From: Nonlabens xiamenensis
GTDB taxonomy: Bacteria > Bacteroidota > Bacteroidia > Flavobacteriales > Flavobacteriaceae
DNA length: 64,000 nt
Reading direction: 5' to 3'
Assembly (NCBI RefSeq): GCF_003865345.1
Contig: NZ_RMVE01000001.1
Span: 372,001-436,000 of the forward strand
A program made the position numbers and the translations under genes. Shown here one piece after another: positions 5,655 through 55,686 of the stretch (positions are counted from its first letter, which is position 1; every line of letters begins with the position of its first letter). The notes below the pieces were generated by a model. The model worked only from the letters and a program-made list of their open reading frames with translations. It did not search any database and was not told the DNA's origin.

Positions 5655-6698
5655 ATGATCTTTCATCACCTGAGCATCAAACAAGTCACAAAAGTCACTT
5701 CCCTGGCCGTAGAAATCGTCTTCGATATCCCCAATGATTTGACCGCAGATTTTTCTTATAAGGCAGGTCAATATCTGACGCTTAAAGCTACAGTAAATGG
5801 ACAAGAAGTGCGCAGGGCCTATTCTATTTCCAGCGCACCCCATGAAGCAGAGCTAAAAGTTGTAGTTAAGGCAGTGGAACACGGTCTTTTTTCCAATCAC
5901 GCCATGACACTCAGAGCTGGTGATCAGATAGAGGTGGCTACACCAGACGGGCTTTTTATACACGAAAACAGCTCCAGCCCAGCCAATTATTTGATGGTGG
6001 CTGCCGGTAGTGGAATTACTCCTATTACTTCGATGGTCAAGCATATTTTGTACACCGAGCCTGAAAGCAATGTGGCATTGATATATGGGAACCAATCAGT
6101 AGCACAGACCATATATTATGAACAATTTAATGATCTAAAAGACCAATACAATGAGCGTTTCCACCTGCAATACTGTTTTTCCAGGGAAGATCGAGATGAG
6201 GCTCTTTTTGGAAGGGTTAGTAAAGGCAACCTTAATTATTTTCTAAAGCAAAAACTGGAGGGTATCGCTTTCGCGAAAGCGTACCTATGTGGCCCTGAGG
6301 AAATGATCACAATGACGACTAACAACCTGACCGAAAAGGAAGTGCTGGCCAAAGAGGACATCAAATTTGAACTCTTTACCACTACAGACAACAAATTGGA
6401 AATCAAAGAAGATGGACATTTGAGTGAGCTGACCGTGATTTTGGATGATGAAACGCATTCTCTGACCCTCAAAAGGGATGAAAACCTACTGGATGTGATG
6501 CTTAAAAATGACATTGATGCACCATACAGTTGTCAGGGCGGAATTTGTAGTTCCTGTATTTGTCAAATTGAGGAAGGAAGTGCAGATATGGCCAAAAACT
6601 CAATTTTGACCGATAGCGAAATTGAAGAAGGACTCACCTTGGCTTGCCAGGCCTATCCGACCAGTGCCAAAATCAAAATCAATTTTGACGAGGTTTAA
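5655..6698 (+). CDS. Ferredoxin-NADP reductase-like oxidoreductase with C-terminal 2Fe-2S domain (PaaE-like)
   Basis: 347 residues. The FAD-binding motif RAYSIS is at about 54-59, the NAD(P)-binding segment AAGSGITP at about 116-122, and the distal CGPEEM motif follows. A plant-type 2Fe-2S domain ends the protein with ligands C293-x4-C298-x2-C301 and C331. This is the arrangement of phenylacetyl-CoA epoxidase reductase PaaE and related electron-transfer flavoproteins; no paa oxygenase genes are nearby, so the acceptor is unknown. An in-frame ATG at 5595 would add 20 residues. I prefer 5655 because a near-consensus -7 box (TATTTTTA, 5628-5635) lies 19 nt upstream of it. An iterated palindrome (6267-6280) encodes AFAKA just before CGPEE. 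Confidence 0.88.
   Translation: MIFHHLSIKQVTKVTSLAVEIVFDIPNDLTADFSYKAGQYLTLKATVNGQEVRRAYSISSAPHEAELKVVVKAVEHGLFSNHAMTLRAGDQIEVATPDGLFIHENSSSPANYLMVAAGSGITPITSMVKHILYTEPESNVALIYGNQSVAQTIYYEQFNDLKDQYNERFHLQYCFSREDRDEALFGRVSKGNLNYFLKQKLEGIAFAKAYLCGPEEMITMTTNNLTEKEVLAKEDIKFELFTTTDNKLEIKEDGHLSELTVILDDETHSLTLKRDENLLDVMLKNDIDAPYSCQGGICSSCICQIEEGSADMAKNSILTDSEIEEGLTLACQAYPTSAKIKINFDEV
6267..6280. repeat. Iterated palindrome GCTTTCGCGAAAGC, in reductase (AFAKA)
   Basis: Perfect copy, extended to 16 bp with flanking C/G. Codes for AFAKA. Confidence 0.95.
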
Positions 6699-6716
6699 TC
6701 GGCACGACATTTAGAT

Positions 6717-6842
6717 TCAAGCATTATTTTTCAAGAGTATCGCCATGGTGTTGCTCTTCTGGGCGATAATTGTCAATTTGTTTTGAATTTGATGGATGCT
6801 TTGTCCCTTTTGACGTACGCGTTTAATAATCAAATACACCAT
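6717..6842 (-). pseudogene. Open frame that may be the displaced 3' part of the small gene at 6893-7108
   Basis: From an ATG at 6842 the complement gives 41 residues (MVYLIIKRVRQ onward), basic and amphipathic, ending at TGA 6717-6719. The frame is open upstream to 6908. It fills the gap between the reductase stop and the small gene and looks like plausible protein, but the absence of a start near the 5' end suggests either a frameshifted gene or chance. Confidence 0.25.
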
Positions 6843-8540: not shown

Positions 8541-9188
8541 ATGGCGATTACACCATTAATTGATCCCCAATACCAGAGCGAAGATTATTTCCCCATTGAC
8601 CTTTCTGTAAACAATCCGTATTGGGATGAATGTGATGTAGGCAATATTGATGTTTTTGATGCTTATCTTCAACGTAAACGACAGGAAACCGGAAGTTTTG
8701 TAGCCTATGGTGGCTATCTGGAGCAACGAGCCCTCTACCGCCAGTCAGCTAGATTCCAAGAGGGTTTGGTGAGAGATACACATCTGGGACTTGACCTGTG
8801 GGCACCGGCGGGAACAACAGTACATGCTTTAATGGATGGTGAAATTCACAGCTTTGCGGACAATAATGACCCAGGCAATTACGGTCCTACCTTGATCCTG
8901 AAACACAATTGGCGAGGCCAACCTCTTTATAGTTTGTATGGTCATTTAAGCAAAAAAGACCTTTCAAGCTGGGAAGTAGGTGCTAGCTTTCGCGAAAGCG
9001 ATATTATCGCACATCTGGGAACAGCGGAAGAAAATGGTGGTTATTCTCCTCACCTTCATTTTCAGGTAATGACAGATATGCTGGAATATCATGGTGATTT
9101 TCCTGGTGTAGCGGCTGCTTCCGAATTAAGATTCTACAAAGGTCTGGTCCTGGATCCCCTCCACTTTTTGTTTCCAGATCATGGCTAG
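8541..9188 (+). CDS. M23-family (LytM-like) peptidase domain protein
   Basis: 215 residues. The core HLGLDLWAPAGTTVHA, YGHLS and HLHFQV motifs are those of lysostaphin/LytM metallopeptidases: His and Asp ligands in HLGLD, then HxH (HLH near residue 172). There is no signal peptide and no membrane anchor, which is unusual for a cell-wall hydrolase. It may be cytoplasmic or a duplicated domain recruited elsewhere. The gene begins 3 bp after scoB and is probably in the same transcript. The iterated palindrome at 8986-8999 encodes the FRES of GASFRESD between the YGHLS and HLHFQ motifs. Confidence 0.82.
   Translation: MAITPLIDPQYQSEDYFPIDLSVNNPYWDECDVGNIDVFDAYLQRKRQETGSFVAYGGYLEQRALYRQSARFQEGLVRDTHLGLDLWAPAGTTVHALMDGEIHSFADNNDPGNYGPTLILKHNWRGQPLYSLYGHLSKKDLSSWEVGASFRESDIIAHLGTAEENGGYSPHLHFQVMTDMLEYHGDFPGVAAASELRFYKGLVLDPLHFLFPDHG
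8986..8999. repeat. Iterated palindrome, in M23 gene (FRES)
   Basis: Perfect 14-bp copy, flanked by A and G. Confidence 0.95.
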
Positions 9189-11571: not shown

Positions 11572-12357
11572 ATGAATCTGGTATCGGTCATCCTACCCAG
11601 CTATAACAGCAGGGGCACCATTCAGGCAGCTCTGGACAGCATCGTGGCCCAGACCCATCGGCCCATTCAAGTCATTACAATAGATGATTGCAGTCAGGAT
11701 GACAGCTACGCTTTCGCGAAAGCGTACTCCAACAAATTTCAGGAAAAAGAACTGGAATTCATCCCATTGAAAAATGATACTAACATGGGTGCGGGATCGA
11801 CGCGCAACAAAGGTATCGAAAGGGCAACAGGTAAGTACATTGCCTTTTTGGATGCAGACGATCTCTGGAAACCCCATAAACTGACTCTTCAACTCAAAGC
11901 CATGGAAAAACATCAAGCAGACTTCTGTTATGGTGCCTACGAAATTTTTAGTCAGGATCCAGACCGGCCCAAAGAAGTACATCTGGTCAGAGAGAAATTG
12001 ACTTTCCCTCAGTTGTTAAGAGCCAATTATATTGGTCACCTGACAGGTATCTATAAAGCGTCCAGTATCGGCAAAGTAGAAATGCCATTGTTGAGAAAAA
12101 GGCAGGACTGGGCCATGTGGCTGGATGTGATGAAAAAGGCTGGTTTTGCGATCGGAGTCCAAGAGCCAATTGCTTCCTATCGTCAGGGAAATGGCTTATC
12201 GTCCAATAAGTGGGCTTTGATCCCATATAATTATGCCGTGTATCGACATCACCTGGGATACCACTGGTTCAAAAGTACGTTGTTTATGCTGGTGTTTTTT
12301 TACGAGCAATTTTTTGTCAAAGGAAGATTCAAACAAAAGATTGACGACCAAAATTAG
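11572..12357 (+). CDS. Family 2 glycosyltransferase
   Basis: 261 residues. GT-A fold with the N-terminal VSVILPSYNSRGTIQAALDS, IDDCSQDDS and the metal-binding FLDADD motif near residue 100. GTs of this type add one sugar to a lipid-linked oligosaccharide on the cytoplasmic face. The start codon abuts the sugar-transferase stop, so it is part of the same operon. The iterated palindrome (11710-11723) encodes AFAKA between strand 2 and the GAG segment. Its stop overlaps the convergent CapK-like gene: the four bases TTAG at 12354-12357 serve both stops. Confidence 0.9.
   Translation: MNLVSVILPSYNSRGTIQAALDSIVAQTHRPIQVITIDDCSQDDSYAFAKAYSNKFQEKELEFIPLKNDTNMGAGSTRNKGIERATGKYIAFLDADDLWKPHKLTLQLKAMEKHQADFCYGAYEIFSQDPDRPKEVHLVREKLTFPQLLRANYIGHLTGIYKASSIGKVEMPLLRKRQDWAMWLDVMKKAGFAIGVQEPIASYRQGNGLSSNKWALIPYNYAVYRHHLGYHWFKSTLFMLVFFYEQFFVKGRFKQKIDDQN
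11710..11723. repeat. Iterated palindrome, in GT2 (AFAKA)
   Basis: Perfect copy; the palindromic context extends to 20 bp, TACGCTTTCGCGAAAGCGTA. Confidence 0.95.
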
Positions 12358-13716: not shown

Positions 13717-14985
13717 ATGAATGTCCTTATCTTGGGAAGTGGCGGCCGTGAGCACGCTTTTGCCCTATCCATTTCAAAAAGCCCATTGTTAAAAAAATTG
13801 TTTGTGGCTCCTGGCAATGCCGGGACCTCAAGCGTAGCAACAAATGTGGATTTGTCCATCACTGACTTTGAGGCGCTGGCTGCCTGGGTATTGGAGCATG
13901 AGATCAATATGGTAGTAGTAGGTCCTGAGGCCCCACTGGTTCTGGGCATTTACGACTTTTTCCAGCGAGAAGAATTGCAACACATCAACCTGATAGGCCC
14001 TTCGCAGCAAGGCGCAGTGTTAGAAGGCTCCAAAGAATTTGCCAAAGAGTTTATGAACCGCCACGGAATTCCTACCGCGGCTTATAAGAGTTTTACCAAA
14101 GACGAACTCAAAGAAGGTATGGCCTTTATAGAAGAGCTCAACCCCCCTTATGTACTCAAAGCAGACGGTCTTGCTGGAGGAAAAGGGGTATTAATCATTA
14201 ATGAAACCGAAGAAGCCAAGGAATCTTTGGAAGAAATGCTGGTTGGAGGAAAATTTGGCGCGGCTTCCAACAAAGTTGTGATTGAAGAATTTCTGGATGG
14301 TATTGAAATGAGTGTATTTGTGATGACCGATGGAAGGTCTTACAAGGTTTTACCTACTGCCAAGGATTACAAACGTATTGGTGAAGGAGACACTGGTTTG
14401 AATACAGGAGGTATGGGAGCTATTTCCCCTGTTCCTTTTGCAGACGAGGTTTTGATGCAAAAAGTCGAGCAACGCATCATCCAGCCCACCATTGCTGGTC
14501 TTGAATCTGAGGATATCGTGTATCGCGGTTTTGTGTTTATCGGACTCATGATCGTGGACAAAGAACCGTATGTGATCGAGTACAACGTACGCATGGGAGA
14601 TCCAGAAACTGAGGTGGTGCTTCCACGTATTTCCAGCGACTTATTGTCCCATCTCAATGCTTTCGCGAAAGCGGAATTAGACAAAGAAGAAGTGAAAATT
14701 GATCCGAGAAGTGCAACGACAGTCATGTGTGTCGCCGGCGGCTATCCAGAAGCTTATGATAAAGGCATGGAAATAACTGATCTTGACAAGGTGGAAGATA
14801 GTATCGTGTTCCACGCAGGCACTACTTTAAACGGAGGAAAGGTAGTGACCAACGGAGGACGGGTAATCGCTGTTACCAGTTTTGGAAAAGATTTCAAGGA
14901 AGCACTAAAAAAATCCTACCAAAATATCGATCAAATCGATTTTGATAGGATGTATTATCGCAGGGATATAGGCTTTGATCTTTAG
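13717..14985 (+). CDS. purD: Phosphoribosylamine-glycine ligase
   Basis: 422 residues, normal for PurD. It begins with the family hallmark MNVLILGSGGREHA and has the ATP-grasp segments KADGLAGGKGV, GGMGAISP and RMGDPETEVVLP. It joins glycine to phosphoribosylamine in the second step of purine synthesis. The frame is open back to 13663, but the ATG at 13717 matches the family start. The iterated palindrome (14659-14672) encodes AFAKA where other PurD proteins have a variable helix, without an obvious length change. The stop overlaps the convergent small gene through a shared TTAG at 14982-14985. Confidence 0.96.
   Translation: MNVLILGSGGREHAFALSISKSPLLKKLFVAPGNAGTSSVATNVDLSITDFEALAAWVLEHEINMVVVGPEAPLVLGIYDFFQREELQHINLIGPSQQGAVLEGSKEFAKEFMNRHGIPTAAYKSFTKDELKEGMAFIEELNPPYVLKADGLAGGKGVLIINETEEAKESLEEMLVGGKFGAASNKVVIEEFLDGIEMSVFVMTDGRSYKVLPTAKDYKRIGEGDTGLNTGGMGAISPVPFADEVLMQKVEQRIIQPTIAGLESEDIVYRGFVFIGLMIVDKEPYVIEYNVRMGDPETEVVLPRISSDLLSHLNAFAKAELDKEEVKIDPRSATTVMCVAGGYPEAYDKGMEITDLDKVEDSIVFHAGTTLNGGKVVTNGGRVIAVTSFGKDFKEALKKSYQNIDQIDFDRMYYRRDIGFDL
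14659..14672. repeat. Iterated palindrome, in purD (AFAKA)
   Basis: Perfect 14-bp copy. Confidence 0.95.
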
Positions 14986-16799: not shown

Positions 16800-17828
16800 A
16801 TGGCAATTCCAAAACGGCTGCTGGTGATGAGACTCAGTGCCATGGGAGATGTAGCACTTTGTGTTCCCGTGCTGCTCGCGCTGCAACGCAAGTATCCAGA
16901 GACGGAATTAATAGCGCTTTCGCGAAAGCGATTTCAACCTATATTATCACAGGTACCTGGACTGACTTTCCTTACCGCTGAAGTAGAAGGGCAACATAAA
17001 GGAATTCTTGGACTCTATAAGCTGGCCAAAAAAATTAATTTACTCGAACCCGATGCGGCAGTCGATCTACACAATGTGTTGCGTACTAAATTACTGCGTA
17101 ATCTGATCAAAGCTCCCGTCAGTATCATTGACAAGGGAAGATCAGAAAAACGTCGTCTGGTCAATGATCCTAATTTTTTTCAGGCACTGCCACACACCAG
17201 TGAGCGTTACCTAGACGCCATCAACCAAATGGGTTATCATGTTCAATTAGAAGGCAACGAATTTCTACCTAAGCCTAGGATGACAGATTCATTAAAAATC
17301 CTCTCCACAGGTGATGGCAGAAGATGGGTAGGATTGGCGCCGTTTGCCGCGCATGAGACCAAAGCATTGACCCAAACTCGTATACGCGAGCTATTGACAG
17401 CCCTGGTTGAGCTTGAGAATGTTTGCTTATTGCTTTTTGGCGGTGGGAAAAAAGAAACAGCTCAACTAAAAGAGCTGGCCAAAGGCCTGGATAATGTGGT
17501 GAATATTGCAGGCACTACCAGTTTTGAAAACGAATTGGCCTTGTTGTCCAGACTGGATGTAATGATAGCCATGGACAGCGGTAATGGGCACCTGGCAGCA
17601 CTTTATGGTGTCCCAGTATTGACGATTTGGGGAAATACCCATCCGTATGCAGGGTTTGCTCCATATGCCCAACCTGCAACCCATCAATTGATTCCAAACC
17701 TTGATAATTATCCATTGGTTCCTACCTCAATTTTTGGCAACAAGGTGATAGCAGGTTATGAAAATGCAGCCGACAGTATTTCCAATGACAGCATCATCAG
17801 CAAAGTTAAAGAACTACTCCAGGGTTGA
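16800..17828 (+). CDS. Family 9 glycosyltransferase (heptosyltransferase-like)
   Basis: 342 residues. The N-terminal KRLLVMRLSAMGDVALCVPVL is the ADP-heptose transferase signature, and MDSGNGHLAALYGVPVLTIWG near residue 260 holds the donor-binding region (given here in its two parts MDSGNGHLAA and YGVPVLTIWG). These enzymes transfer heptose or similar sugars to lipid A core. It starts 1 bp after the DUF4254 gene. The iterated palindrome (16916-16929) is read in its third frame as LSRKR, the only such use in the window. The 3' end overlaps the convergent gene by 15 bp. Confidence 0.88.
   Translation: MAIPKRLLVMRLSAMGDVALCVPVLLALQRKYPETELIALSRKRFQPILSQVPGLTFLTAEVEGQHKGILGLYKLAKKINLLEPDAAVDLHNVLRTKLLRNLIKAPVSIIDKGRSEKRRLVNDPNFFQALPHTSERYLDAINQMGYHVQLEGNEFLPKPRMTDSLKILSTGDGRRWVGLAPFAAHETKALTQTRIRELLTALVELENVCLLLFGGGKKETAQLKELAKGLDNVVNIAGTTSFENELALLSRLDVMIAMDSGNGHLAALYGVPVLTIWGNTHPYAGFAPYAQPATHQLIPNLDNYPLVPTSIFGNKVIAGYENAADSISNDSIISKVKELLQG
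16916..16929. repeat. Iterated palindrome, in GT9 (LSRKR)
   Basis: Perfect copy, 16 bp with flanks. The only one read in the LSRKR frame. Confidence 0.95.
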
Positions 17829-25605: not shown

Positions 25606-25619
25606 GCTTTCGCGAAAGC
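25606..25619. repeat. Iterated palindrome, intergenic
   Basis: Perfect 14-bp copy 46 bp upstream of the TPR-like gene's start. Confidence 0.95.
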
Positions 25620-38809: not shown

Positions 38810-39856
38810 TTAATTTTCAGTGTAATGGTGATACATCATCTCAAGGCCTACTTCAAGTTGGATTTTATGTTTCCAGCCCAATTGGTGAAGCTTGGTTACA
38901 TCGGTGAGCTTGCGAGGTGTACCATCGGGCTTACTTTCATCCCAGCATAATTGCCCCTGATATCCGACAACCGTTTTGATCATTTCAGCCAGCTGGTTGA
39001 TCGCTACATCTTCTCCCGTGCCAATATTGATGTGGGTGTTACGTACCTCATCCATCTCCTGGCTTAAGTCCTTAAAACCTACCTTATTCATCAAAAAAAC
39101 ACAGGCACTGGCCATGTCCTCAGACCACAAGAACTCTCGTTTTGGATTCCCTGTTCCCCACAGGTGTATGCGGTCTTCAAAGATGCCGTGTTGGTGTAAT
39201 TCCGCTTTCGCGAAAGCGTAATCCTCTACACCTAAATCTTCTAAAATCGCCTTTTTATCGCCCTTCATCAACAATTTCCCCAGGTGCATCTTCCTGATTA
39301 AAGCAGGTAAAACATGGGATTTTTCCAAATCAAAATTATCATTAGGCCCGTATAGATTGGTGGGCATGACCGATATAAAGTTCGTCCCGTATTGGAGATT
39401 ATAACTCTCACACATTTTAATACCAGCTATCTTAGCGATGGCATATGGCTCATTGGTATATTCCAGCGGACCAGTGAGTAAACTGTCCTCAGGCATGGGC
39501 TGGGGAGCCATTTTTGGATAAATACACGTACTGCCCAAAAATAGAAGCTTCTTAACACCAGCAACATAACTCTGATGGATCACATTATTTTGTATCATCA
39601 GGTTCTGATAGATAAAATCTGCCCGATAAGTGTTATTGGCTACAATACCACCCACGGAAGCCGCAGCCAAAAAAACGTAATCCGGTTTTTCCTGTTCAAA
39701 AAATCTGGCGGTGGCCATTTGGTCAGTGAGATCCAACTGAGCTCGGGTACGCATAATGATATGCTTAAAACCTTGTTTTTTCAGTTGATTTACAATCGCA
39801 CTGCCTACTAGTCCGCGATGTCCAGCAACGAATATTCTTGCGTTGAGATCCATCAT
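38810..39856 (-). CDS. fcl: GDP-L-fucose synthase
   Basis: 348 residues. The NADP loop is [12 protein letters not shown], followed by SCIYP-type [11 protein letters not shown] and the catalytic Tyr/Lys in YAIAKIAG. Homologues reduce and epimerise GDP-4-keto-6-deoxymannose to GDP-L-fucose. It overlaps gmd by four bases (ATGA), forming a GDP-fucose cassette. Two adjacent ATGs (39856 and 39853) exist. The iterated palindrome (39204-39217) encodes AFAKA in the region between catalytic helix and sugar-binding loop. Confidence 0.94.
39204..39217. repeat. Iterated palindrome, in fcl (AFAKA)
   Basis: Perfect copy, 16 bp with flanks. Confidence 0.95.
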
Positions 39857-43073: not shown

Positions 43074-44789
43074 TTATTCTTGCTGCTTTAAAAATCGATC
43101 GACAATTTGCTCCAGGATCTTTTCGGTAATCACGTATACTGGTTTTACACCAATCAGACCTAAACCTCCACTGGCCAAAGTGTGTCCGGTTTTCAAAGGA
43201 TTATCACTGGCATAATAAGCATACCTAAGCTTTACTTTTTTATGGATACTACGACGCACACGGGAGGCTGCTTGAATGGCTTTCTGGTAGTGTGCTCCTT
43301 CCATCTCAAGACCGATGACATTCCAACTCGAGTGATAGAAAAACTCCAGCAGGTCTTTGTTTTGTAGTGATGTGCCTAACACAGTAACCATAGACCCAGA
43401 AACCACATTGATATCTTCACAAGCCAAGTCCTTTTTGGTAAGTTGGTTTTTAAACGGATAATTATCTGCTGTTCCTTCAAATACGTGGGCATCAGGTATC
43501 ATAATGTCCCCTTTGTCACCTTCCAATATTCCGGCTTTACCCATGATATTGATAGACTTAACATTCATGGAGATATTGAAGTGTTCCTCGTCTGTAAAAG
43601 GTTTCAGCAACTCATCCATAGTTTCATAGGCTTGTTCACCAAAAGCATAATCCATCACGATCAGTACGGGTTTTTTACTGTTCTCGCTTTCGCGAAAGCG
43701 GTCATCCACAAAGTCCACTTGTTGAAAGTCACTGGCACCCGTATCAAAAATCTGTACATCAATGTTTGTCCCGCTTTGATCCGGCAACTCGTACATGCCA
43801 TGAGATAACGCATACTTTTTAATCAGGTCCCGGTTCCTTTTACCACTGTCATTACTCAACTCGGCAAAAACCTCCATCCTGCTTTTTTTGGCCATTTGAG
43901 ATGCCAAGGCTTTGGGACCGTATAGCGAATTCATCACACTGTGTAGGTTGGCACTGATGATATGTAGTGGACGATCCAGCAAATCTTTTTCACTCAGGAA
44001 TTTTTTGATGCGTAGAGCCCAACGGTCACCGTGGATGTGATGCCCCAGACGCTCCCTTAAAACCGGTGAAAAAGTGACCAATCGTTTTTGTTCGTCCATG
44101 ATTTCCCGACGTGCCAATCTTCCCAAGTGGTAAATGATACTGAGAAACCTGTTGGGATTGGCTGATGTGGCAAATTTTGGATACACCGACTTGACTTCAT
44201 CAAAGGTTCTTCCCAAGATATTGGCCACATGGGTAATGGCTACTTCTTTTTCTTCCTGGCTTAATTTCTTTTTGGAAACAGCATCTTCCAGACATTTCCA
44301 ATCTCTGGTGGTATTGCCATTGTCTCCCACAATCACATTTTTCATGATTTTATGGGACTCGATCATCAGGAAGGTCAGATGGGTGAGAATGTCGTAAATT
44401 TCTGAACGACCTCTGGTAACCTCAATATTCATTTGCTCTTCGTCAATACGATAGCAGTTGCGGCGGCGCTTGGATGGTATAATAGGTTTAAAATGGGATC
44501 CTTCATAGCCCTCATCACTGGTCAGATTGATATAGGTACATTCTTCAATTCCCACCGGCAGACGATCCATGATATAAAGCAACCCGTTTAATTCGGTTTT
44601 ATTCTCCCCAATACTTCCATAAATTTCAGGTCGCAAGGTCAACAGGGATTCCCTCAATGACTCACCGCTTACTCCCATAGGTTTATAAAAACCACGGTTA
44701 AATAAGTGTCGCATGGTAATATACATGCGCTCAATGGCATTGGTACTTTCCTGGGCTCTTGTGCGAGGCGCTACGTTGATAATGGGCAT
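43074..44789 (-). CDS. DUF6909-like protein with nucleoside phosphorylase-like C-terminus
   Basis: 571 residues. The N-terminal part is rich in RRNCYRIDEEQMNIE-type sequence of unknown fold. The C-terminal part has INIMGKAGILEGDKGDIMIP and GLEMEGAHYQKAI; the EMEGAH segment and the GDIMIPDAHVFEG stretch recall nucleosidases and phosphorylases (MTA/AMP nucleosidase family), whose EMEG or EMEA motif contacts the ribose. I infer a nucleoside- or nucleotide-processing activity. The family name is from memory. The start is the ATG at 44789 (a TTG at 44795 is also possible). Palindrome copy at 43686-43699 (FRES). Confidence 0.6.
   Translation of the reverse strand: MPIINVAPRTRAQESTNAIERMYITMRHLFNRGFYKPMGVSGESLRESLLTLRPEIYGSIGENKTELNGLLYIMDRLPVGIEECTYINLTSDEGYEGSHFKPIIPSKRRRNCYRIDEEQMNIEVTRGRSEIYDILTHLTFLMIESHKIMKNVIVGDNGNTTRDWKCLEDAVSKKKLSQEEKEVAITHVANILGRTFDEVKSVYPKFATSANPNRFLSIIYHLGRLARREIMDEQKRLVTFSPVLRERLGHHIHGDRWALRIKKFLSEKDLLDRPLHIISANLHSVMNSLYGPKALASQMAKKSRMEVFAELSNDSGKRNRDLIKKYALSHGMYELPDQSGTNIDVQIFDTGASDFQQVDFVDDRFRESENSKKPVLIVMDYAFGEQAYETMDELLKPFTDEEHFNISMNVKSINIMGKAGILEGDKGDIMIPDAHVFEGTADNYPFKNQLTKKDLACEDINVVSGSMVTVLGTSLQNKDLLEFFYHSSWNVIGLEMEGAHYQKAIQAASRVRRSIHKKVKLRYAYYASDNPLKTGHTLASGGLGLIGVKPVYVITEKILEQIVDRFLKQQE
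43686..43699. repeat. Iterated palindrome, in DUF6909-like gene (FRES)
   Basis: Perfect copy, 16 bp with flanks. Confidence 0.95.
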
Positions 44790-44834: not shown

Positions 44835-46349
44835 CTAGAAGTTACTCTGTTGGGTCAATTGTTCCAATACCTCAGCAATCTTACGGTCATTGGAAAGTCT
44901 GGGCAACTTATTTTGGCCACCCAGTTTGCCGATGGTCTTCATATATTTTTGGAAACTCCCAGCTGGTAACACCCGCAATTTTAAAGGTTGGAGCACTTTA
45001 CCGGTGATCAGGTCGTCGTAATACGCATTTTGCTGTCGCATTTCTAGATCAAGGCTGGAACTGAATTGGGCCAATTTATCCTGAGCAACTTCTTCCATTT
45101 CCACAAACCATTCATGGAAAGGGAGTTCGCCAACTGCTGGCTCTAGTTGTGGCGCCACAGTGAATTCATTAATCACTAACCCATGGGCAGAAGCGGCGGC
45201 TTTCATGGCTTCTTCTACCTCCTTACCGATCACGTGTTCGCCACTGGCACTGATATAGTGTTTGATCCTACCAGTAACTACAACCCGATAGGGCTCAAGA
45301 CTTGTAAAAGCAATAGTATCGCCGATATTATAAGCCCAAAGTCCGGCATTGGTGGAGATAATCATGACATAATTCTTCCCCAACTCTACCTCTCCGATAC
45401 TCAATCTGGGCGGGTCTTCCTCATAAAACCGATCAGCCGGAATAAACTCATAAAAGATGCCCGCATCTAATAAAAGCAACATGCCTTTTTCATCCTGACG
45501 ATCCTGATAGGCAAAAAAGCCTTCACTGGCAGGGAACAATTCTATACTGTCCACTTCCCGACCAATCAATTGCCGAAATTTGGAACGATAAGGCTCAAAA
45601 TTTACGCCGCCATAAATGAACAATTCAAAATCTGGAAAAACCTCACCCACCTTTTTTCCTGTGCGCTGAACAATACGTTCAAAGTACATCTGGACCCAAC
45701 TCGGAATTCCAGAGATCACCGTCATGCGCTCTGGTAGTGTCTCATCAATCACCGCCTCTACTTTTGTTTCCCAGTCCTCAATACAATTGGTTTGCCAAGA
45801 GGGCATTCTGTTTTTCTGCAGATAGTTAGGTACGTAATGCGCTACTATTCCACTGAGTCTACCCAATTTGATTCCGTTCTTTTCAGACATTTCGGGACTT
45901 CCCTGGAGAAATATCATCTTTCCATCTACAAAAGCACTATTCCCAGTCTCGTGAATATAGCTTAAGATCGCATTGCGAGCTGCTTTAACATGCTCTGGCA
46001 TGGATGCCTTGGTGATAGGAATATATTTTGCACCACTTGTCGTCCCAGATGTTTTGGCAAAGTAGAGCGGTTGTCCTGGCCATAAGATATCAGACTCCCC
46101 AGCCACTACCCGATCCACATAGGGCCGCAGCTCTTCATAGTCGCGGATGGGCACTCTTTGCACAAAATCTTGGTGGCTTTTAATGTTGGCAAAATCATGC
46201 GCTTTCGCGAAAGCGGTATTACCTGCCGTTTGCACCAGTTCCCGAAATACCTTTTGTTGGGTCTGAACAGGTCGATTCGCCCATTTGGCCGTCTTTTTGG
46301 CGACTATGGCTGCAAATATTTTGGCACCAATGGATTTTAGAGAAGTCAT
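44835..46349 (-). CDS. GH3 auxin-responsive promoter family protein
   Basis: 504 residues. FAKTSGTTSGAKYIPITKASM near residue 95 and IYGGVNFEPYRSKF around 247 are typical of GH3-family acyl-acid amido synthetases, a branch of the adenylate-forming enzymes. Bacterial members' substrates are unknown. The start overlaps the M23 stop (ATGA). The iterated palindrome (46201-46214) encodes AFAKA in NTAFAKAHDF, at the place where relatives have a TxFGxxHxF segment. This suggests the palindrome replaces aligned residues rather than inserting extra ones. Confidence 0.9.
   Translation of the reverse strand: MTSLKSIGAKIFAAIVAKKTAKWANRPVQTQQKVFRELVQTAGNTAFAKAHDFANIKSHQDFVQRVPIRDYEELRPYVDRVVAGESDILWPGQPLYFAKTSGTTSGAKYIPITKASMPEHVKAARNAILSYIHETGNSAFVDGKMIFLQGSPEMSEKNGIKLGRLSGIVAHYVPNYLQKNRMPSWQTNCIEDWETKVEAVIDETLPERMTVISGIPSWVQMYFERIVQRTGKKVGEVFPDFELFIYGGVNFEPYRSKFRQLIGREVDSIELFPASEGFFAYQDRQDEKGMLLLLDAGIFYEFIPADRFYEEDPPRLSIGEVELGKNYVMIISTNAGLWAYNIGDTIAFTSLEPYRVVVTGRIKHYISASGEHVIGKEVEEAMKAAASAHGLVINEFTVAPQLEPAVGELPFHEWFVEMEEVAQDKLAQFSSSLDLEMRQQNAYYDDLITGKVLQPLKLRVLPAGSFQKYMKTIGKLGGQNKLPRLSNDRKIAEVLEQLTQQSNF
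46201..46214. repeat. Iterated palindrome, in GH3 gene (AFAKA)
   Basis: Perfect copy, 16 bp with flanks. Confidence 0.95.
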
Positions 46350-47717: not shown

Positions 47718-50700
47718 CTATTCCTTTGAAAGCCCTTTCTGTAAGACCTGCTTAATGCCTTCCAGATGATCGGTAAATTCCATTATTTGCCCTAGCATTT
47801 GTGCCATTTGATTTTGGCCACCCATACTGTTCAACTTGTTATTTTTAGCAAAAATCTCTTTCATTTCTGTCCATCGCTTTTGTTCTGACGGACTGATCAC
47901 CCCCAATATCTCCTTGAACTTTAATAAATTGGCCTCAGCAGCACTGGTCAAGGTTTGGGATTCGCTTTCATAATGTGCCAACAGCAAAATTTGCAATTCA
48001 GCATCATCCATGATAGGTACAACCTTGGCCACCAGCTTGTTCATATCTCGATAAGAACCTTGTAGTTTAAAGCTGGGCTCGGTTCGATAGGCATCCTCCA
48101 TACCTGCACTTTGAATATAGGCCTGATTCACTTTCAACACCGTATCTCTCACCTTAATGACTTTTTGTAATACAGCCATATAGTCTGCTATCTCTTGTGT
48201 GCTGTGATTCCCTTTCAATTGAGTGTCCTCCAACGGAACAGCTTTTTGGTCTACTCCGGATCGCTGTACCCGATCAATCAAGGTATAAACATCATCAAAA
48301 TGTTTATTGGACAGCTCCTGCAATACAGGATTGCTGGTCAATGCGTTCTCGATTAAGCTAAGTTCAAACAAATGTGACGTATCGCCAATGATGTCCCCCA
48401 GGTTATAAATATCGGCACGGTTGGCCAACATGTCCGGAATCTGGAATTTCTCTCCGCTTTCCGTGTAGGGGTTTCCAGCCATAATAACGCAAAATTTCTT
48501 ACTGCGCAGGTCATAAGTTTTTGGCTTACCGTTGAACACACCTTCAATTTTTCTGGTTCCATCAGACAGGCTGATAAATTTTTGTAGGAACTCTGGATGG
48601 CAATGCTGTATATCATCCAGGTACAACATCACATTGTCTCCCATCTCAAAGGCCAAGTTCAATTTTTTAAGCTCTTCACGGGTGGCTGCATTTCCCGCTG
48701 CTTCGGGATCTACCGAAGTGATATCATGCCCAATGGCCGGACCATTAATCTTCATAAATATAAGACCCAAACGGTTGGCCACATACTCCATCAAAGTCGT
48801 TTTACCGTATCCTGGCGGAGAAATCAGCAAGAGCAATCCCATGCGGTCGGTGCGTTTGTTATCTCCCACAGTACCTAATTGCTTGGCCAGGTTATCTCCA
48901 ATCAAAGGGAAGTACACTTGATCAATCAATTTATTGCGAACGAATGAGCTGAGCACTCTCGGCTTGAACTCTTCCAGTCGCAATTGTTCCTTCAAATCTT
49001 CCGTGACTTGGTGCTTGGCTTTCCTGAAGCTTTCATACGCAGGAACCTGCACGCGAGCAAAATCACCCAATCGATTCATAAATTCATGGTAATCAAAATG
49101 ATATACACCATCTTCGATCAAGGCGTGGGATCCTTTACAGCCATCTATCTTTTCATACGGTTGGATAGCAAGGACATCGGTGGCAATAAGTTCAGCGTAA
49201 AGGATAATGGCAACGGCCTCATCAATGTACTCTTGTGTGATGCCAGTAGCATTGGCTTTCGCGAAAGCGGCCACCCATTGACGAGCCAGTTCTACCTTTC
49301 CAGCTTCTGTATCACAGGCTTCCAGGCCATGTTTGAATTTAAGATCAGCGTTTTGTTCCTTCATCTTTCTCTCAAAGGCATCTTTGAGTTCAAGGGCAGG
49401 TCCGCTGACAGTAAAATGGTTATTGTCCTTCAGTTCTTCCAGCAAATAGGTCGCCATATTCCGAGCCGCTTCTTCTCTCATTTGTGGCTTCCAATCCAAC
49501 ATTTCCTGCTGCAATTCATCAATGATCACATGGTACTCGCTACTGTTGGGAAAAACTTCCAACACCTCTCCAGCATTTTTTATCAAACGGTCCAAGGACT
49601 TTTGCTGATTGGCATTGATGGCGTTCCAGAAAAATTGCGCCTGGGCCCGTATGGTGGCAGTATACACCAATAATCCCAGATCCTGGTGCTTATGCAACAA
49701 CGCAGATAGTATCAAGGCCGCATCGTGGTCATGAACACCTTTGACATAACCACCAGAATAATTTCCGCTGGCAACCTCCCGTACTTTTTCCAGCAAGGAC
49801 TCCTGACTTAATTTGATCAGGTCTTCCCGTCCAGTCGATTCAAACAGGGAATAGGCCAAATATTCAGCGCGATAAACCTGAGCATTTTCTGATACCAATT
49901 CCTGGTCCCAAAGCGGTTTTGACTGCAACAGCAATTCGTGTTGTAGCTCTTGGTAGAAATCAGTTCCGGTCAAATGGTAAAAAAGTTGGTCGCTCTTATT
50001 GACGATGGTCAAGTCCAGTTGTTGTTTGTTGACTCCAAACCTGTGTTTTCCTAGTTTGATGACGCTGTCGCCGTCTTCGTAGAGTTCGTTTTTATCTTTG
50101 AGTTTGCGCAAAGCATCCTCACGAGCCACCTTCATGGCCGTTTCAATGGATTCTGCCTTACCTCCATCACCTAGTTCCTTGAGAGATTTGATGATATCAC
50201 GTACCTTATTGATCATCAAATCACTGGCAAAATAGGCGTTGATCTCGGTGATACTGCCCAATGATTGCGAGCGTTTTTGCGCACCTTTCAGAATACGTTG
50301 GGCGGCATTCTGCAAGGCAATAGCCTTTTTGTTGCGCGCCTCTACCAGGTTGTTTTTCCTGTTGTCAAATGCGGCGTAAACCTCCTCCCGTTTTTCAATA
50401 ATTTCGGTGATATAGGTTTCATAATCAGCAAATTTCCCCTCCAGTTCTTCCAGTTGGATAGAGATCTTGGTCAGGTATTCATCGCATTTTTCTGGTGTAT
50501 CCGCAATATCCAGATAGTTGATGATACTTTGGTCGATCAGTTTGAGCTGTGCGGCAAAATCAGCTTGTGCCTCCTTCTTTCCAACGCTCTTGATCTTGTT
50601 TTTGATGGCGGCTTTGACCTGATTAATCGTAGCAAAGATCAAAGAAATGCTTTCTATGATTTTGGTAGAATGTGAGGTGTCTTCAATGTCCAGATTGGAA

Positions 50701-52628
50701 ACAATTTCAATCAGCAATTCAAGATCTTCGGCGATCTGGTTGACCTCTTTTTCCAATGCCTTAATCTCGATGACTTTACCCGTGTTTTCTAAGGCCGCTT
50801 TCTTTTCTTCAACTAAGTCTTGATAGGGCGCCAAGGCCTTATCATCCAGTAAAAAAGTAACCGCACGCCGAGAAATAGTTTCATTTTGGGTGACGATTTG
50901 CTCCTCCAGGTCTTTGATGAAATCATCGTTGACATAACGGATCTCATAAAGACCTATGACTTCCCCACGTAGACTGCGCAACTGGGTCAATAACTGTACA
51001 AAATCGTTGATGCTTTTAAAAGAAGTACTCTTGACCTTATCAAAAAGTGCTTTGGCTTTCGCAGCAATGTCTTTGGTTTGCTTTTCTGCCTGGCGGCGCA
51101 ATTGTTTTACCTTTTCAAACTCGTCAATAGCAGCATTGGCGGCTTTATTGATTTCTTTTAAAGGTAAATTGAGTTCTTGCGCCTCTTTTTCTGGTATCCA
51201 GTAATAGGCGTCTAGGATGTCTTTGGAAGATTTAGCGATATCATCGTACAAACCTTCATAACTATCTTCTTTATTGAGCAGGGTAATTAACTCGTTGGCC
51301 TCTGCCATGGCTTTGACGATATCCTTGTTCCCAATCTTATAGAGCAAGGTATCCTGATGTTCAGAAGGCATGATGTCTCCCTTTAAATAGGGGGTCTGCC
51401 AGATCTGAATCATATGGTGTTTGGTTTGCTCATCCTCTGTTCTGAAATAGCAGAGTTCGCCCTTGTCCAAAATGGTAAAACCATTACATACAATCGGGGT
51501 CTTGACCTCTTGGTCAATCACATTGTAGGACATCAACACGTATAAACCTTCTTCAGGGTTATAAAATATATACATGTGGTCTTCACCATTGGGCGAAGCA
51601 ATCTTTTGCTGGTATTTCAACGTACCTACATCCGTAGGAAATACATTGTAAGCGCCGGTTTGCAGGTAATACCCACTGGGAAAGATAATTCCCTGGTCGT
51701 CAGGTAACAGGACTGCTGCTTGAGACAGGCTATCGATTTTTTCTACTTGCTTGATCTTGTGGTTATAAACAAAATACCTGGTATTTTCCTGAAAAGGTTT
51801 GATCTCCATGATCACCAAGTTCCCTAGATCGGCATAGCGGTATTGCCCATCGTCAAGTGTTTGGTCCCGGTGCTCCACATCTTCCCGGTAGATCCCTTGT
51901 CCGTCTTCCGTATTGTCTTCTACCTTGATGGTCAGATCACCGCCGATGGTTTCAACAAAAACTTTGTCCAAAATTGACACATGGGCATGCGTCCCGTAGC
52001 GCTGATTATCGCGGCCTGCTTCCTTCCACTCAAACCCGTATTGCGATGGAAACCTAAATTCGTGCTCGCTTCTATTGTCCACATAATTGAGCTTGCCATC
52101 GTTGATCAGCCATTTAAAAGTCTTGATATCGGTTACCGAATCGCTGAGCTGAAACACCATGTGCAAATAATTGCCCATAACCGCAAATTTTGAAAAAATG
52201 GTGTTGCGGTAATATTTGTAAAGGTTCTGGAAATCCGTCAAAAAGAGGGGATCCTGAATCAAGTCAAGGCCACTCTCGCTTTCGCGAAAGCGCAATTCAC
52301 CAGCTTCACCTTCTGATCGATCAAATTCATACACACTAAACACATCGCTGAGTTGGATCTCTGTGCGCAAACCAAAATGCACGTTATAACCAAATAAGCT
52401 CGTCTTTCCAAAGGATACGATATCTCTGGCAATGCAATTGTTCTCTGTATTGACACGATCATTGGCAATCAAGCGTGTTTCCAGCGAACCAAATACCTTT
52501 GTACGCTCCGCATTGAGCACTGACAAACGTTGCTGTAGATCATTTTTCTGCTTGAGCAAACGGCTCTGGATGATCTCGTAAGTTCCTGAGTCTAGTTGAG
52601 TAGTGTCTTTATGTTGGTTTTCTGCCAT
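47718..52628 (-). CDS. Giant AAA ATPase with coiled-coil N-terminal region (DUF3686-like)
   Basis: 1636 residues. The long N-terminal part has an all-beta/DUF3686-like region followed by coiled coils (about 500-850). The C-terminal third is an AAA domain with Walker A SPPGYGKTT near residue 1270 and Walker B MLYLDDIQH. Homologues are often labelled DNA-repair ATPases, but the neighbours (flotillin, YqiJ-like, PspA, YjfI-like) point to membrane-stress biology. The start is ATG 52628 (MAENQHKD); the frame runs 23 codons further into the structured element without an ATG. Palindrome copies at 49255-49268 (AFAKA) and 52278-52291 (FRES). Confidence 0.82.
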   Translation of the reverse strand: MAENQHKDTTQLDSGTYEIIQSRLLKQKNDLQQRLSVLNAERTKVFGSLETRLIANDRVNTENNCIARDIVSFGKTSLFGYNVHFGLRTEIQLSDVFSVYEFDRSEGEAGELRFRESESGLDLIQDPLFLTDFQNLYKYYRNTIFSKFAVMGNYLHMVFQLSDSVTDIKTFKWLINDGKLNYVDNRSEHEFRFPSQYGFEWKEAGRDNQRYGTHAHVSILDKVFVETIGGDLTIKVEDNTEDGQGIYREDVEHRDQTLDDGQYRYADLGNLVIMEIKPFQENTRYFVYNHKIKQVEKIDSLSQAAVLLPDDQGIIFPSGYYLQTGAYNVFPTDVGTLKYQQKIASPNGEDHMYIFYNPEEGLYVLMSYNVIDQEVKTPIVCNGFTILDKGELCYFRTEDEQTKHHMIQIWQTPYLKGDIMPSEHQDTLLYKIGNKDIVKAMAEANELITLLNKEDSYEGLYDDIAKSSKDILDAYYWIPEKEAQELNLPLKEINKAANAAIDEFEKVKQLRRQAEKQTKDIAAKAKALFDKVKSTSFKSINDFVQLLTQLRSLRGEVIGLYEIRYVNDDFIKDLEEQIVTQNETISRRAVTFLLDDKALAPYQDLVEEKKAALENTGKVIEIKALEKEVNQIAEDLELLIEIVSNLDIEDTSHSTKIIESISLIFATINQVKAAIKNKIKSVGKKEAQADFAAQLKLIDQSIINYLDIADTPEKCDEYLTKISIQLEELEGKFADYETYITEIIEKREEVYAAFDNRKNNLVEARNKKAIALQNAAQRILKGAQKRSQSLGSITEINAYFASDLMINKVRDIIKSLKELGDGGKAESIETAMKVAREDALRKLKDKNELYEDGDSVIKLGKHRFGVNKQQLDLTIVNKSDQLFYHLTGTDFYQELQHELLLQSKPLWDQELVSENAQVYRAEYLAYSLFESTGREDLIKLSQESLLEKVREVASGNYSGGYVKGVHDHDAALILSALLHKHQDLGLLVYTATIRAQAQFFWNAINANQQKSLDRLIKNAGEVLEVFPNSSEYHVIIDELQQEMLDWKPQMREEAARNMATYLLEELKDNNHFTVSGPALELKDAFERKMKEQNADLKFKHGLEACDTEAGKVELARQWVAAFAKANATGITQEYIDEAVAIILYAELIATDVLAIQPYEKIDGCKGSHALIEDGVYHFDYHEFMNRLGDFARVQVPAYESFRKAKHQVTEDLKEQLRLEEFKPRVLSSFVRNKLIDQVYFPLIGDNLAKQLGTVGDNKRTDRMGLLLLISPPGYGKTTLMEYVANRLGLIFMKINGPAIGHDITSVDPEAAGNAATREELKKLNLAFEMGDNVMLYLDDIQHCHPEFLQKFISLSDGTRKIEGVFNGKPKTYDLRSKKFCVIMAGNPYTESGEKFQIPDMLANRADIYNLGDIIGDTSHLFELSLIENALTSNPVLQELSNKHFDDVYTLIDRVQRSGVDQKAVPLEDTQLKGNHSTQEIADYMAVLQKVIKVRDTVLKVNQAYIQSAGMEDAYRTEPSFKLQGSYRDMNKLVAKVVPIMDDAELQILLLAHYESESQTLTSAAEANLLKFKEILGVISPSEQKRWTEMKEIFAKNNKLNSMGGQNQMAQMLGQIMEFTDHLEGIKQVLQKGLSKE
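49255..49268. repeat. Iterated palindrome, in AAA ATPase gene (AFAKA)
   Basis: Perfect 14-bp copy. Confidence 0.95.
52278..52291. repeat. Iterated palindrome, in AAA ATPase gene (FRES)
   Basis: Perfect copy, 16 bp with flanks. Confidence 0.95.
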
Positions 52629-52680
52629 TGAAAGTAGAATCGTAGTTGATGGTATGTAGTTTATAAAGTTCGCGCGCTCT

Positions 52681-52825: not shown

Positions 52826-52833
52826 AAATGGTG

Positions 52834-54903: not shown

Positions 54904-54975
54904 GCTTGTTGTTTATTTGTTTTAAGGTTGATTTATTTAATTGATAAGTGCGTCCCAAAATTGGGAACCACAATT

Positions 54976-55686
54976 TTAGATCTTACTGACATAATAATAG
55001 CTCTTGTCATCTGCGGCCTTGATGATAAGTACGCTTTCGCGAAAGCGCAATTCTGATCCGTCCAAAGATTTGACATAAATGCTCATACTATTCCCATCAG
55101 CCATCACTTCGGCATTGCCCAATTTCGTTCCTGAAATAGTGGACAAGAGTAAGGCTTCCCTACCGATAAAATCTACAGCACGATCGCCGTCCTTATTCAA
55201 GTGTTTAAAAAAGGATTTGAAGGGCGTTGTACAGATCTTGGTTAAAATCAGGGAGGGGATCAAACTGATCAGCACTATGGCATAACCGATGCTCAGGTCA
55301 TAAGTACCTGTAACAGTAGTGGTAATGACACTGATGAACCACCATAGGAATATCCAAAAGGTAAAGGTGAACATAAATGGCAGCCCTACAAAGTTGAAGT
55401 AGATCAATACGATCTGCCACCATTTGAGTTTTCTGGTGCCTTTATTGACTACGTGTTCCCGGTCTACTTCAGCATTGGCCACATCCTGAAAGTCAAGATT
55501 ACCCCCTTCTATACCTGAATCCAGATCAACATCTGCATCCACATCCACATCGATATCTACATCTACATCCAGATCAAAATCAATCCCACTGATCATGGTA
55601 AATATCCAGTACAGGATAAGAATGATCAACAAGACCGTTAGGGTCAGGTTGACTTCAGAAAATAATATGTTGAGGTAGTTGTCCAA
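54976..55686 (-). CDS. YqiJ-like membrane protein with acidic tandem repeat
   Basis: 236 residues. Three or four transmembrane helices and a C-terminal beta-rich (OB/NfeD-like) domain (about 165-236) resemble YqiJ, the partner of YqiK flotillins. A run of alternating Asp and hydrophobic residues (Asp36 to Asp56: DFDLDVDVDIDVDVDADVDL) is encoded by hexanucleotide repeats and is odd next to a membrane helix. The only available start is TTG at 55686, because an in-frame TAA lies 15 nt upstream and the first ATG (residue 31) is too late. Palindrome at 55033-55046 (ELRFRES). Confidence 0.78.
   Translation of the reverse strand: MDNYLNILFSEVNLTLTVLLIILILYWIFTMISGIDFDLDVDVDIDVDVDADVDLDSGIEGGNLDFQDVANAEVDREHVVNKGTRKLKWWQIVLIYFNFVGLPFMFTFTFWIFLWWFISVITTTVTGTYDLSIGYAIVLISLIPSLILTKICTTPFKSFFKHLNKDGDRAVDFIGREALLLSTISGTKLGNAEVMADGNSMSIYVKSLDGSELRFRESVLIIKAADDKSYYYVSKI
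55033..55046. repeat. Iterated palindrome, in YqiJ-like gene (FRES)
   Basis: Perfect copy, 16 bp with flanks. Confidence 0.95.
55517..55580 (-). repeat. Hexanucleotide repeat tract within the YqiJ-like gene
   Basis: Imperfect repeats of GATGTG/GATATC-type hexamers on the coding strand encode alternating Asp and Val/Ile/Leu. The period of 6 keeps the reading frame if copies are gained or lost. Confidence 0.6.

What the first reader, a model, noticed from the sequence alone, without database searches (positions are those of the whole stretch)
6267..55046. A 14-bp perfect palindrome, GCTTTCGCGAAAGC, iterated 13 times
Seen directly: 13 exact copies (6267, 8986, 11710, 14659, 16916, 25606, 27388, 39204, 43686, 46201, 49255, 52278, 55033) and one copy with a mismatch (20218). 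Chance expectation for a given 14-mer in 64 kb is about 0.0002. Nine copies extend to 16 bp as CGCTTTCGCGAAAGCG or better. Copies are spread roughly every 5 kb and mostly lie inside genes, like the cyanobacterial HIP1 octamer rather than like REP elements or parS clusters. Possible roles are a nucleoid-protein or methylase site, a chromosome-organisation mark, or a self-spreading motif. I do not know of a described function.
Basis: partly seen in the sequence, partly recalled or inferred. Interest (0 to 1): 0.85.

Follow-up and report, generated by a model that had tools for sequence, protein, structure and literature searches.

The report
Evenly spaced 14-base palindrome across genomes
Marine bacteria of the genus Nonlabens and of the Dokdonia group carry several hundred exact, evenly spaced and strictly preserved copies of one 14-letter palindrome that even dictates parts of their proteins; it looks like a genome-wide self-DNA tag read by an unknown protein.

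Summary
In detail: 13 exact copies and one 1-mismatch copy. One search counts 553 in the 3.68 Mb Nonlabens genome. All 23 genus members searched have 288-857, a Dokdonia genome 905, and two further genomes 408 and 857. Other Flavobacteriaceae searched have 0-19, and 294 other Bacteroidia genomes 0-4. Synonymous-codon shuffling predicts 0.6 genic copies where 66 are seen; all 110 AFAKA pentapeptides in three samples are written by the word.

Sites are over-dispersed: 0 of 99 gaps under 1.5 kb, 21.7 expected. They stay exact between species while surrounding DNA diverges, arose by substitution at the sites that align well, and sit in dyad-symmetric, strand-biased flanks of about 20 bp. They are sparse in species-specific DNA, absent from one plasmid and two Nonlabens phages, but present in some temperate-like phages.

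RecC, a second ParB and two methyltransferase families are excluded as universal partners. Best reading: a self-DNA tag read by a dimeric protein, most like a palindromic DNA uptake sequence. A chromosome-organising site is the main rival. The reader protein was not found.

The parts
6267..6280 (.). exact motif copy, in ORF 5595-6698 (oxidoreductase with FAD-, NAD- and 2Fe-2S-binding domains)
8986..8999 (.). exact motif copy, in ORF 8541-9188 (peptidase M23)
11710..11723 (.). exact motif copy, in ORF 11572-12357 (glycosyltransferase 2)
14659..14672 (.). exact motif copy, in ORF 13663-14985 (phosphoribosylglycinamide synthetase)
16916..16929 (.). exact motif copy, in ORF 16800-17828 (glycosyltransferase 9)
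20218..20231 (.). copy with one mismatch (GCTTTCGCGGAAGC), in ORF 18443-23956 (alpha-2-macroglobulin)
25606..25619 (.). exact motif copy, at the extreme start of ORF 24934-25632 (TTG start; possibly intergenic)
27388..27401 (.). exact motif copy, in ORF 26916-28139 (glycosyltransferase)
39204..39217 (.). exact motif copy, in ORF 38810-39856 (NAD-dependent epimerase)
43686..43699 (.). exact motif copy, in ORF 43074-44795 (DUF6909)
46201..46214 (.). exact motif copy, in ORF 44835-46349 (GH3 family)
49255..49268 (.). exact motif copy, in ORF 47718-52697 (DUF3686/AAA); exact at the same place in G002, G003, G005 and G008, and in G004 by way of its alignment to G008
52278..52291 (.). exact motif copy, in ORF 47718-52697; exact in G002, G003 and G008, one mismatch in G005; the G004 counterpart (aligned to G008) is interrupted by a 20-bp palindrome
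55033..55046 (.). exact motif copy near the end of ORF 54976-55686; encodes RFRES; same site in 4 named Nonlabens loci and Dokdonia, replaced without a length change in 75 loci of other genera

Best explanation
The 14-mer, with its near-invariant +1 G and a G-poor 3' flank (C-poor 5' flank) of about 20 bp on each side, is the recognition site of a dimeric DNA-binding protein shared by Nonlabens and the Dokdonia group. It most likely tags self DNA for natural transformation, as a DNA uptake sequence (DUS). Fragments carrying one site would be taken up or recombined preferentially, so the word spreads and is repaired by biased recombination. A second site on the same fragment adds nothing, hence the exclusion zone of 1.3-2 kb. 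Shown: abundance, strictness, spacing, positional conservation within Nonlabens, substitution origin at the sites that align well, depletion in species-specific DNA of one genome pair, absence from one plasmid and two phages. Inferred: the reader protein, that it acts in uptake, and that these bacteria are competent.
For: The profile matches hallmarks described for Neisseria DUS and Haemophilus USS in PMC2397512, PMC7811141 and PMC1939737 (passages; for PMC1939737 also one section). (1) Even spacing: CV 0.57, 0.69 and 0.35 in three Nonlabens genomes against about 1 if random (listed places only); G234, 0 of 99 gaps under 1300 against 15.9 expected; G008, CV 0.55. (2) Words more conserved than their surroundings: 76 of 78 aligned sites exact between G008 and G004 against 56.6% of all aligned 14-mers; 174 of 203 directed comparisons exact over six Nonlabens genomes. 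(3) Depletion in species-specific DNA: 0.85 against 3.19 per 10 kb. (4) Non-coding enrichment without convergent or divergent bias. (5) Lineage-specific flank dialect: +2 is T in 66% of Dokdonia but A or G in 76% of Nonlabens half-sites. (6) 0 copies in a 29 kb mobilisable plasmid and in Nonlabens phages P12024S/L. (7) ComEC in 20 of 20 genomes searched; two Riemerella species of the same family are competent and R. columbina prefers its own DNA (PMC7965970 passages). (8) The word sits in two lineages that are not sisters, mostly at different places (few sites), as expected if a transferable reader or drive creates sites anew.
Against: No report of transformation in Nonlabens or Dokdonia turned up in three searches, and no uptake receptor was found. 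ComEC is equally present in genera without the word, so it does not discriminate. Known uptake words are not palindromes (PMC1939737). In G000 the mismatch spectrum is sharper than for a known DUS: 76 exact, 13 one-mismatch, 4 two-mismatch, against 438 and 947 for the A. pleuropneumoniae word (Table 6); Dokdonia is less sharp (41, 5, 13). The DUS hallmark of lying in more divergent regions is not met: flank identity equals random positions. Spacing exclusion is not absolute in Dokdonia (closest pair 126 bp) or G004 (270 bp). Phages carrying the word also fit an intracellular role. Depletion in new DNA is expected under any slow-gain model.
Confidence: 0.42

Rival explanations
1. The word is the binding site of a clade-specific nucleoid protein that organises the chromosome (anchors, loops, topology), one site serving a few kilobases.
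For: Even spacing with an exclusion zone; no strong regional bias in 20 stretches round the G002 chromosome, 0-7 per 20 kb; dyad-symmetric 50-60 bp site without arm covariation, as for a protein dimer; strict sequence and deep positional conservation; present in some phages, absent from one plasmid.
Against: The Noc/ParB route is disfavoured: each of the 8 motif genomes searched has exactly one ParB_N protein, as do 12 of the 18 others. No known nucleoid protein with such a site is known to me (recalled). Avoidance of G but not C in the 3' flank is odd for minor-groove or wrapping contacts. The same word in two non-sister lineages at mostly different positions is harder to explain for a core chromosome protein.
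Confidence: 0.28
2. A Chi-like recombination hotspot: the palindrome halts a recombination nuclease from either side, and the C-poor 5' flank on each strand becomes the single-stranded tail for RecA.
For: Spacing of 4-6 kb in most samples, like E. coli Chi (1008 per 4.64 Mb); the rule 'C-poor 5' flank on each strand'; the motif-free phages P12024S/L are annotated with their own ERF and YqaJ recombination genes; absent from a plasmid.
Against: RecC is absent from all 26 genomes searched, so only an AddAB-type enzyme could act, and that was not tested. Known Chi words are 5-8 nt and not palindromic (recalled); a 16-18 bp dyad with flanks does not suit a single-strand scanner. Chi has many near-matches (8855 one-mismatch); this word has few.
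Confidence: 0.12
3. A HIP1-like word created and kept by an orphan DNA methyltransferase and methylation-directed repair.
For: Palindromic, iterated, genic and intergenic, like HIP1 (PMC4390886 abstract and outline); TCGCGA in the window lies mostly in the word (13 of 15).
Against: C5 methyltransferase PF00145 is absent from 5 of 12 motif genomes and PF01555 from 7 of 12; three lack both. Spacing repulsion and 20-bp flanks are not explained. Other methyltransferase families were not tested.
Confidence: 0.06
4. A self-copying micro-element that inserts itself.
For: Near-exact copies and few intermediates in G000. Near two of the four sites examined, orthologues of other genera have length differences (19 of 73 and 37 of 73).
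Against: At the other two sites 0 of 75 and 0 of 73 orthologues of other genera have a gap: the change is substitution in place. Arms do not covary. Copies avoid one another.
Confidence: 0.03
5. A transcription signal such as a bidirectional terminator or regulator site.
For: The 16-mer can fold as a 6-bp hairpin.
Against: Most copies are inside genes, and intergenic copies show no consistent preference for convergent, divergent or tandem spacers. The 3' flank is A-rich, not T-rich. No Rfam family reaches its threshold in the window.
Confidence: 0.03

Closest known systems
DNA uptake sequences (Neisseria DUS, Pasteurellaceae USS)
   Same: Hundreds of lineage-specific copies, even spacing, conserved in place, non-coding enrichment, sparse in species-specific DNA, flank information and dialects (PMC2397512 and PMC7811141 passages; PMC3630211 listing and start of abstract only)
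   Different: Perfect palindrome, longer, few near-matches in Nonlabens, not in more divergent regions, in Bacteroidota; uptake role untested and receptor unknown
HIP1 and alternate HIPs of cyanobacteria
   Same: Iterated palindrome in genes and spacers
   Different: 14-18 bp plus flanks instead of 8 bp, about one per 4-7 kb, repulsion between copies, no universal methyltransferase of the two families tested
Chi sites
   Same: Spacing of about 5 kb; polar flank
   Different: Palindromic, at least 14 bp, no RecC; few near-matches
Noc/ParB/SlmA/MatP sites (recalled)
   Same: Palindromic protein-type sites of 12-16 bp
   Different: Many more copies, no regional restriction seen in the sample, no second ParB

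Membership tests
DNA uptake sequence (DUS/USS) | Raises uptake or transformation of DNA that carries it | not testable with these tools
   Needs a competent strain; no report of competence in Nonlabens or Dokdonia found
DNA uptake sequence (DUS/USS) | Over-represented and evenly spaced | tested here: met
   weaker but present in Dokdonia
DNA uptake sequence (DUS/USS) | More conserved than surrounding DNA | tested here: met
   76 of 78 aligned sites exact against 56.6% of aligned 14-mers
DNA uptake sequence (DUS/USS) | Sparse in species-specific DNA | tested here: met
   3 copies in 35.4 kb unaligned against 78 in 244.6 kb aligned, one genome pair
DNA uptake sequence (DUS/USS) | Lies in locally more divergent, permissive regions | tested here: not met
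   Flank identity equals random positions, one genome pair
DNA uptake sequence (DUS/USS) | Competence machinery present | tested here: inconclusive
   ComEC PF03772 in 20 of 20 genomes, those without the word included; no other competence gene was searched
HIP1-type word | Methyltransferase specific for the core accompanies the word | tested here: inconclusive
   PF00145 absent from 5 of 12 and PF01555 from 7 of 12 motif genomes; other families untested
Chi site | RecBCD or AddAB recognition | tested here: inconclusive
   RecC absent in 26 of 26; AddAB not tested
Noc/ParB site | Dedicated ParB-family reader besides the canonical ParB | tested here: not met
   One ParB_N protein in each of 8 motif genomes
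Mobile micro-repeat (REP/MITE) | Gain by insertion | tested here: not met
   Two of four sites: 0 of 75 and 0 of 73 orthologues gapped; the other two lie near variable-length stretches (19 of 73, 37 of 73)

The most novel reading that the evidence does not exclude
A previously undescribed genome-wide marking code: an unknown dimeric protein reads a dyad site of 50-60 bp placed every few kilobases, with a repulsion zone of 1.3-2 kb, to label or organise resident DNA. The code has arisen largely separately in two lineages of marine Flavobacteriaceae, overrides protein sequence (AFAKA, RFRES), and has been adopted by some phages, while at least one plasmid and two phages of the genus lack it.
Probability: 0.35. 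Interest if true: 0.93.

Novelty: new variant of a known kind. Interest (0 to 1): 0.8.

Why it matters
Few bacterial words of this length are known to me to be iterated hundreds of times, kept exact, and strong enough to write pentapeptides into dozens of proteins. If it is an uptake code, it would be the first well-marked one in Bacteroidota that I could find (PMC7965970 lists only untested short candidate k-mers for Riemerella) and a palindromic one, would make self/non-self DNA exchange testable in marine bacteria, and would give a handle on the unusual transformation machinery of Flavobacteriaceae. If it is an organising site, it gives a direct map of chromosome units of a few kilobases.

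Tried and rejected
Chance or codon usage: rejected by shuffles. RecBCD Chi: RecC absent. Noc-like ParB: single ParB only. C5 and N6/N4 methyltransferases as universal partner: patchy. Long cruciform or extended hairpin: arms do not covary. Terminator or promoter role: no consistent spacer-type bias. Family-wide palindromic dialects in other Flavobacteriaceae: none seen in loci of up to about 18 kb; the commonest long palindromes there occur about once per locus, so they look like single conserved sites. Plasmid test: of the small extra contigs only G008:C2 showed a plasmid gene among the proteins scanned; L219 carries chromosomal-type genes and the others were left undecided, so the plasmid result rests on one plasmid. 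Naming G234 and G250: not achieved; a first try with one protein found no match in them, a second with genes near parB groups them with Dokdonia. No structure prediction was run, because no candidate reader emerged.
Full report
OBSERVATION. The 14-mer GCTTTCGCGAAAGC occurs 13 times exactly and once with a mismatch at the stated places; 100 dinucleotide shuffles give 0.01 on average. Eight copies, not nine, extend to the 16-bp palindrome. GCGATCGC (HIP1) occurs once in the window. In one search the whole genome (3,684,258 bases, 13 contigs) holds 553 copies and none of the reversed control. The genus is taken to be Nonlabens from the named loci (N. dokdonensis 96%, N. ulvanivorans 95% protein identity).

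DISTRIBUTION. One search covered 59 genomes: 23 of 23 of the genus (own included) have 288-857 copies, and 1 of the other 36 has 6. One search covered 397 genomes of the family: besides four of the genus, G234 has 408 and G250 857; 74 others have 1-19 and 317 none; the reversed control gave one hit in all. One search covered 39 genomes (40 asked; one not held): the Dokdonia genome has 905, N. ulvanivorans 566, three Leeuwenhoekiella 10, 7 and 6, Thermobacterium 4. One search covered 295 genomes of the class: apart from G000 none exceeds 4. Low-copy genomes often carry copies in clusters; proteins scanned from one such island (L132) are an AcrB-type RND pump, an outer-membrane efflux protein, a multicopper oxidase and two P-type ATPases, so these copies are probably transferred DNA. 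A four-protein tree (978 columns, 20 genomes, one neighbourhood) places Dokdonia, G250 and G234 with Leeuwenhoekiella (support 1.000) and Nonlabens elsewhere. Of the genic Dokdonia sites tested (25, doubles included), 8 had a Nonlabens orthologue in the sequence held, 5 distinct after removing doubles; 1 of these is shared. For G234/G250, 2 of 13 had a Nonlabens orthologue (0 shared) and 2 of 13 a Dokdonia one (1 shared). The word is thus the same but its places seem to have arisen largely separately, on few sites.

STRICTNESS. A 464 kb sample of G000 has 76 exact, 13 one-mismatch and 4 two-mismatch copies, where an order-3 Markov model (5 simulations) gives 0, 0 and 0.6. A 160 kb Dokdonia sample has 41, 5 and 13, less sharp. 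For comparison, Table 6 of PMC1939737 (section read) lists 438 and 947 for the A. pleuropneumoniae uptake word, 1008 and 8855 for Chi, and 5648 and 1830 for a HIP1 decamer. The word is the commonest palindromic 14-mer in each of four samples and, with its own one-base-shifted forms, the commonest 14-mer of any kind.

IT WRITES PROTEIN. In coding sequence of the G000, G002 and G008 samples there are 66, 64 and 55 copies; synonymous shuffles give 0.63, 0.53 and 0.37 (30 shuffles each). The pentapeptide AFAKA occurs 35, 41 and 34 times against 0.1-0.2 expected from amino-acid frequencies, and every one of the 110 is encoded by the word; 1.12 Mb of coding sequence of other genera has 5. Frame 0 is used in 113 of 194 genic sites. 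At the end of the gene at 54976-55686, the window, four named Nonlabens loci and Dokdonia read RFRES where other genera read, for example, TYGST or KFHEK. At protein level this site has no gap in 75 of 75 loci of other genera, a second Dokdonia site none in 73 of 73, while near two further sites 19 of 73 and 37 of 73 orthologues differ in length. Winogradskyella already has AFAKA at one site without the DNA word, so sites can settle where the peptide is tolerated.

CONSERVATION. Over six Nonlabens genomes, 203 directed site comparisons in aligned segments gave 174 exact, 7 one-mismatch, 11 with two or more mismatches and 11 with gaps. Without the close pair G004-G008 (40 of 41) this is 134 of 162, where mean segment identity per pair is 72-89%. 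Comparisons run both ways and are not independent, and only alignable segments count. Between G008 and G004 over 280 kb, 76 of 78 aligned sites are exact against 56.6% of all aligned 14-mers. Shared DNA has 3.19 copies per 10 kb and unaligned DNA 0.85 (3 copies in 35.4 kb). Flank identity equals random positions.

SPACING. Gaps are more even than random: G000 (99 gaps, mean 6.0 kb) CV 0.57 with 0 gaps under 1.5 kb against 21.7 expected; G004 CV 0.69, 4 against 20.4, closest pair 270 bp; G018 CV 0.35, 0 against 7.7 (these use the places that the searches listed). G234 has 0 of 99 gaps under 1.3 kb against 15.9, and G250 0 of 23 against 5.4. G008 has 2 of 80 under 1 kb against 19.8. Dokdonia has CV 0.64, 3 of 40 under 1 kb against 8.8, and a closest pair of 126 bp, so the exclusion is not absolute. 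In the window the long gaps (27.4-39.2 kb and beyond 55 kb) fall on low-GC stretches. Twenty 20-kb stretches round the G002 chromosome hold 0-7 copies each.

ANATOMY. With 183 sites of G000 and G002 read from both strands, +1 is G in 89%, and G stays at 3-15% through +4 to +20. In 56 strictly intergenic sites of six genomes (some orthologous) +1 is G 91%, +4 A 71%, +10 A 76%, and G is 1-12% from +4 to +18. The rule reads the same on both strands (5' flank poor in C). The arms do not covary (largest z 2.6 of 30 positions), which speaks for two half-sites read separately and against a long hairpin. Dokdonia prefers T at +2 (66%) where Nonlabens has A or G (76%): a flank dialect. Intergenic copies are enriched (10 of 76, 42 of 106, 25 of 81 and 17 of 39, with 8.6-13% non-coding by simple ORF calling) but show no consistent preference for one spacer type.

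OTHER REPLICONS. A scan of viral contigs with the 16-mer found 41 stretches on 30 contigs. Eighteen contigs hold two or more copies in the stretches held, up to six, several being the same phage type; 12 hold one, several of these GC-rich and possibly chance. Proteins scanned from some of them include portal, major head, tape-measure and tail-sheath proteins; one type has an integrase and one has a head/portal protein related to that of Peternella, whose record lists transposases. Hosts are unknown. The isolated Nonlabens phages P12024S and P12024L, which resemble each other closely in gene order, have none, nor any TCGCGA; three phages of other hosts have none. The 29 kb mobilisable plasmid of G008 has none.

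CANDIDATE READERS. RecC 0 of 26. ParB_N: one per motif genome, 8 of 8. PF00145 absent from 5 of 12 and PF01555 from 7 of 12 motif genomes. ComEC 20 of 20, genera without the word included. No reader was identified.

READING. Passages of PMC2397512, PMC7811141 and PMC1939737 give for uptake sequences: even spacing, spacing that matches conversion fragments, conservation above the surroundings, scarcity in strain-specific DNA, even distribution as an expected result of drive, and a preference for permissive regions. Even spacing, conservation and scarcity are met here; permissive regions are not; conversion fragments were not tested. Riemerella columbina, in the same family, prefers its own DNA, and that paper lists short candidate k-mers without a test (PMC7965970, passages); the R. 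anatipestifer transformation proteins of unknown function are widespread in Flavobacteriaceae (PMC8459023, abstract and one section). I therefore commit to a self-DNA tag of the uptake-sequence type at 0.42, with a chromosome-organising site at 0.28. Membership in the uptake-sequence family is not claimed: its defining test, uptake, cannot be run here.

IN PRINT. No paper of the open library held the 14-mer or the inner 12-mer (ten hold the inner 10-mer, unrelated by title and abstract start), and searches on the genera, palindromes, uptake sequences in Bacteroidetes and Chi/AddAB gave no description in the rows listed. Subscription journals are mostly outside that library.

Noticed in passing
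L132 1086-16605 (G122); motif neighbourhoods of like layout in L138, L144, L129, L134, L135: Metal-transport and efflux genes (RND pump, outer-membrane efflux protein, multicopper oxidase, P-type ATPases; scanned in L132 only) in another Flavobacteriaceae genus carry the motif; pairs exactly 933 bp apart occur in four genomes (G122, G131, G145, G259). It looks like DNA transferred from a motif-bearing lineage.
   Followed up: partly
L217 and L257 (G008:C2, 29,179 bp): Mobilisable plasmid (Mob_Pre) without a single motif copy in a host genome with 752.
   Followed up: yes
L215, L216: Nonlabens phages P12024S and P12024L have no motif and no TCGCGA, and are annotated with ERF and YqaJ recombination genes.
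   Followed up: partly
G004 counterpart of the G008 site at region position 66691 (reversed region coordinates): The site is interrupted in G004 by the palindrome CCTGCCTGCCGGCAGGCAGG, whose core is also seen three times in L075; possibly a small inserting element.
   Followed up: no
L020 1687, L023 1778, L024 1770: Three Leeuwenhoekiella species share a TTTCGCGAAA at one conserved place; their genomes have 6-10 exact motifs, above most of the family.
   Followed up: no
window 28000-39000 and 56000-64000: The two long motif gaps coincide with low-GC stretches (0.32-0.39), probably newer DNA.
   Followed up: partly
window 47718-55686: Neighbouring genes for a DUF3686/AAA ATPase, a Band_7 protein and a 236-aa protein; three motifs lie in the first and the last. 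The Band_7 protein is 79-96% identical in the 80 best loci.
   Followed up: no
L109-L112 and L149-L168 (G002 sample): An AGAGTTAAGAGT-type repeat is the commonest 12-mer unrelated to the motif in the G002 sample.
   Followed up: no
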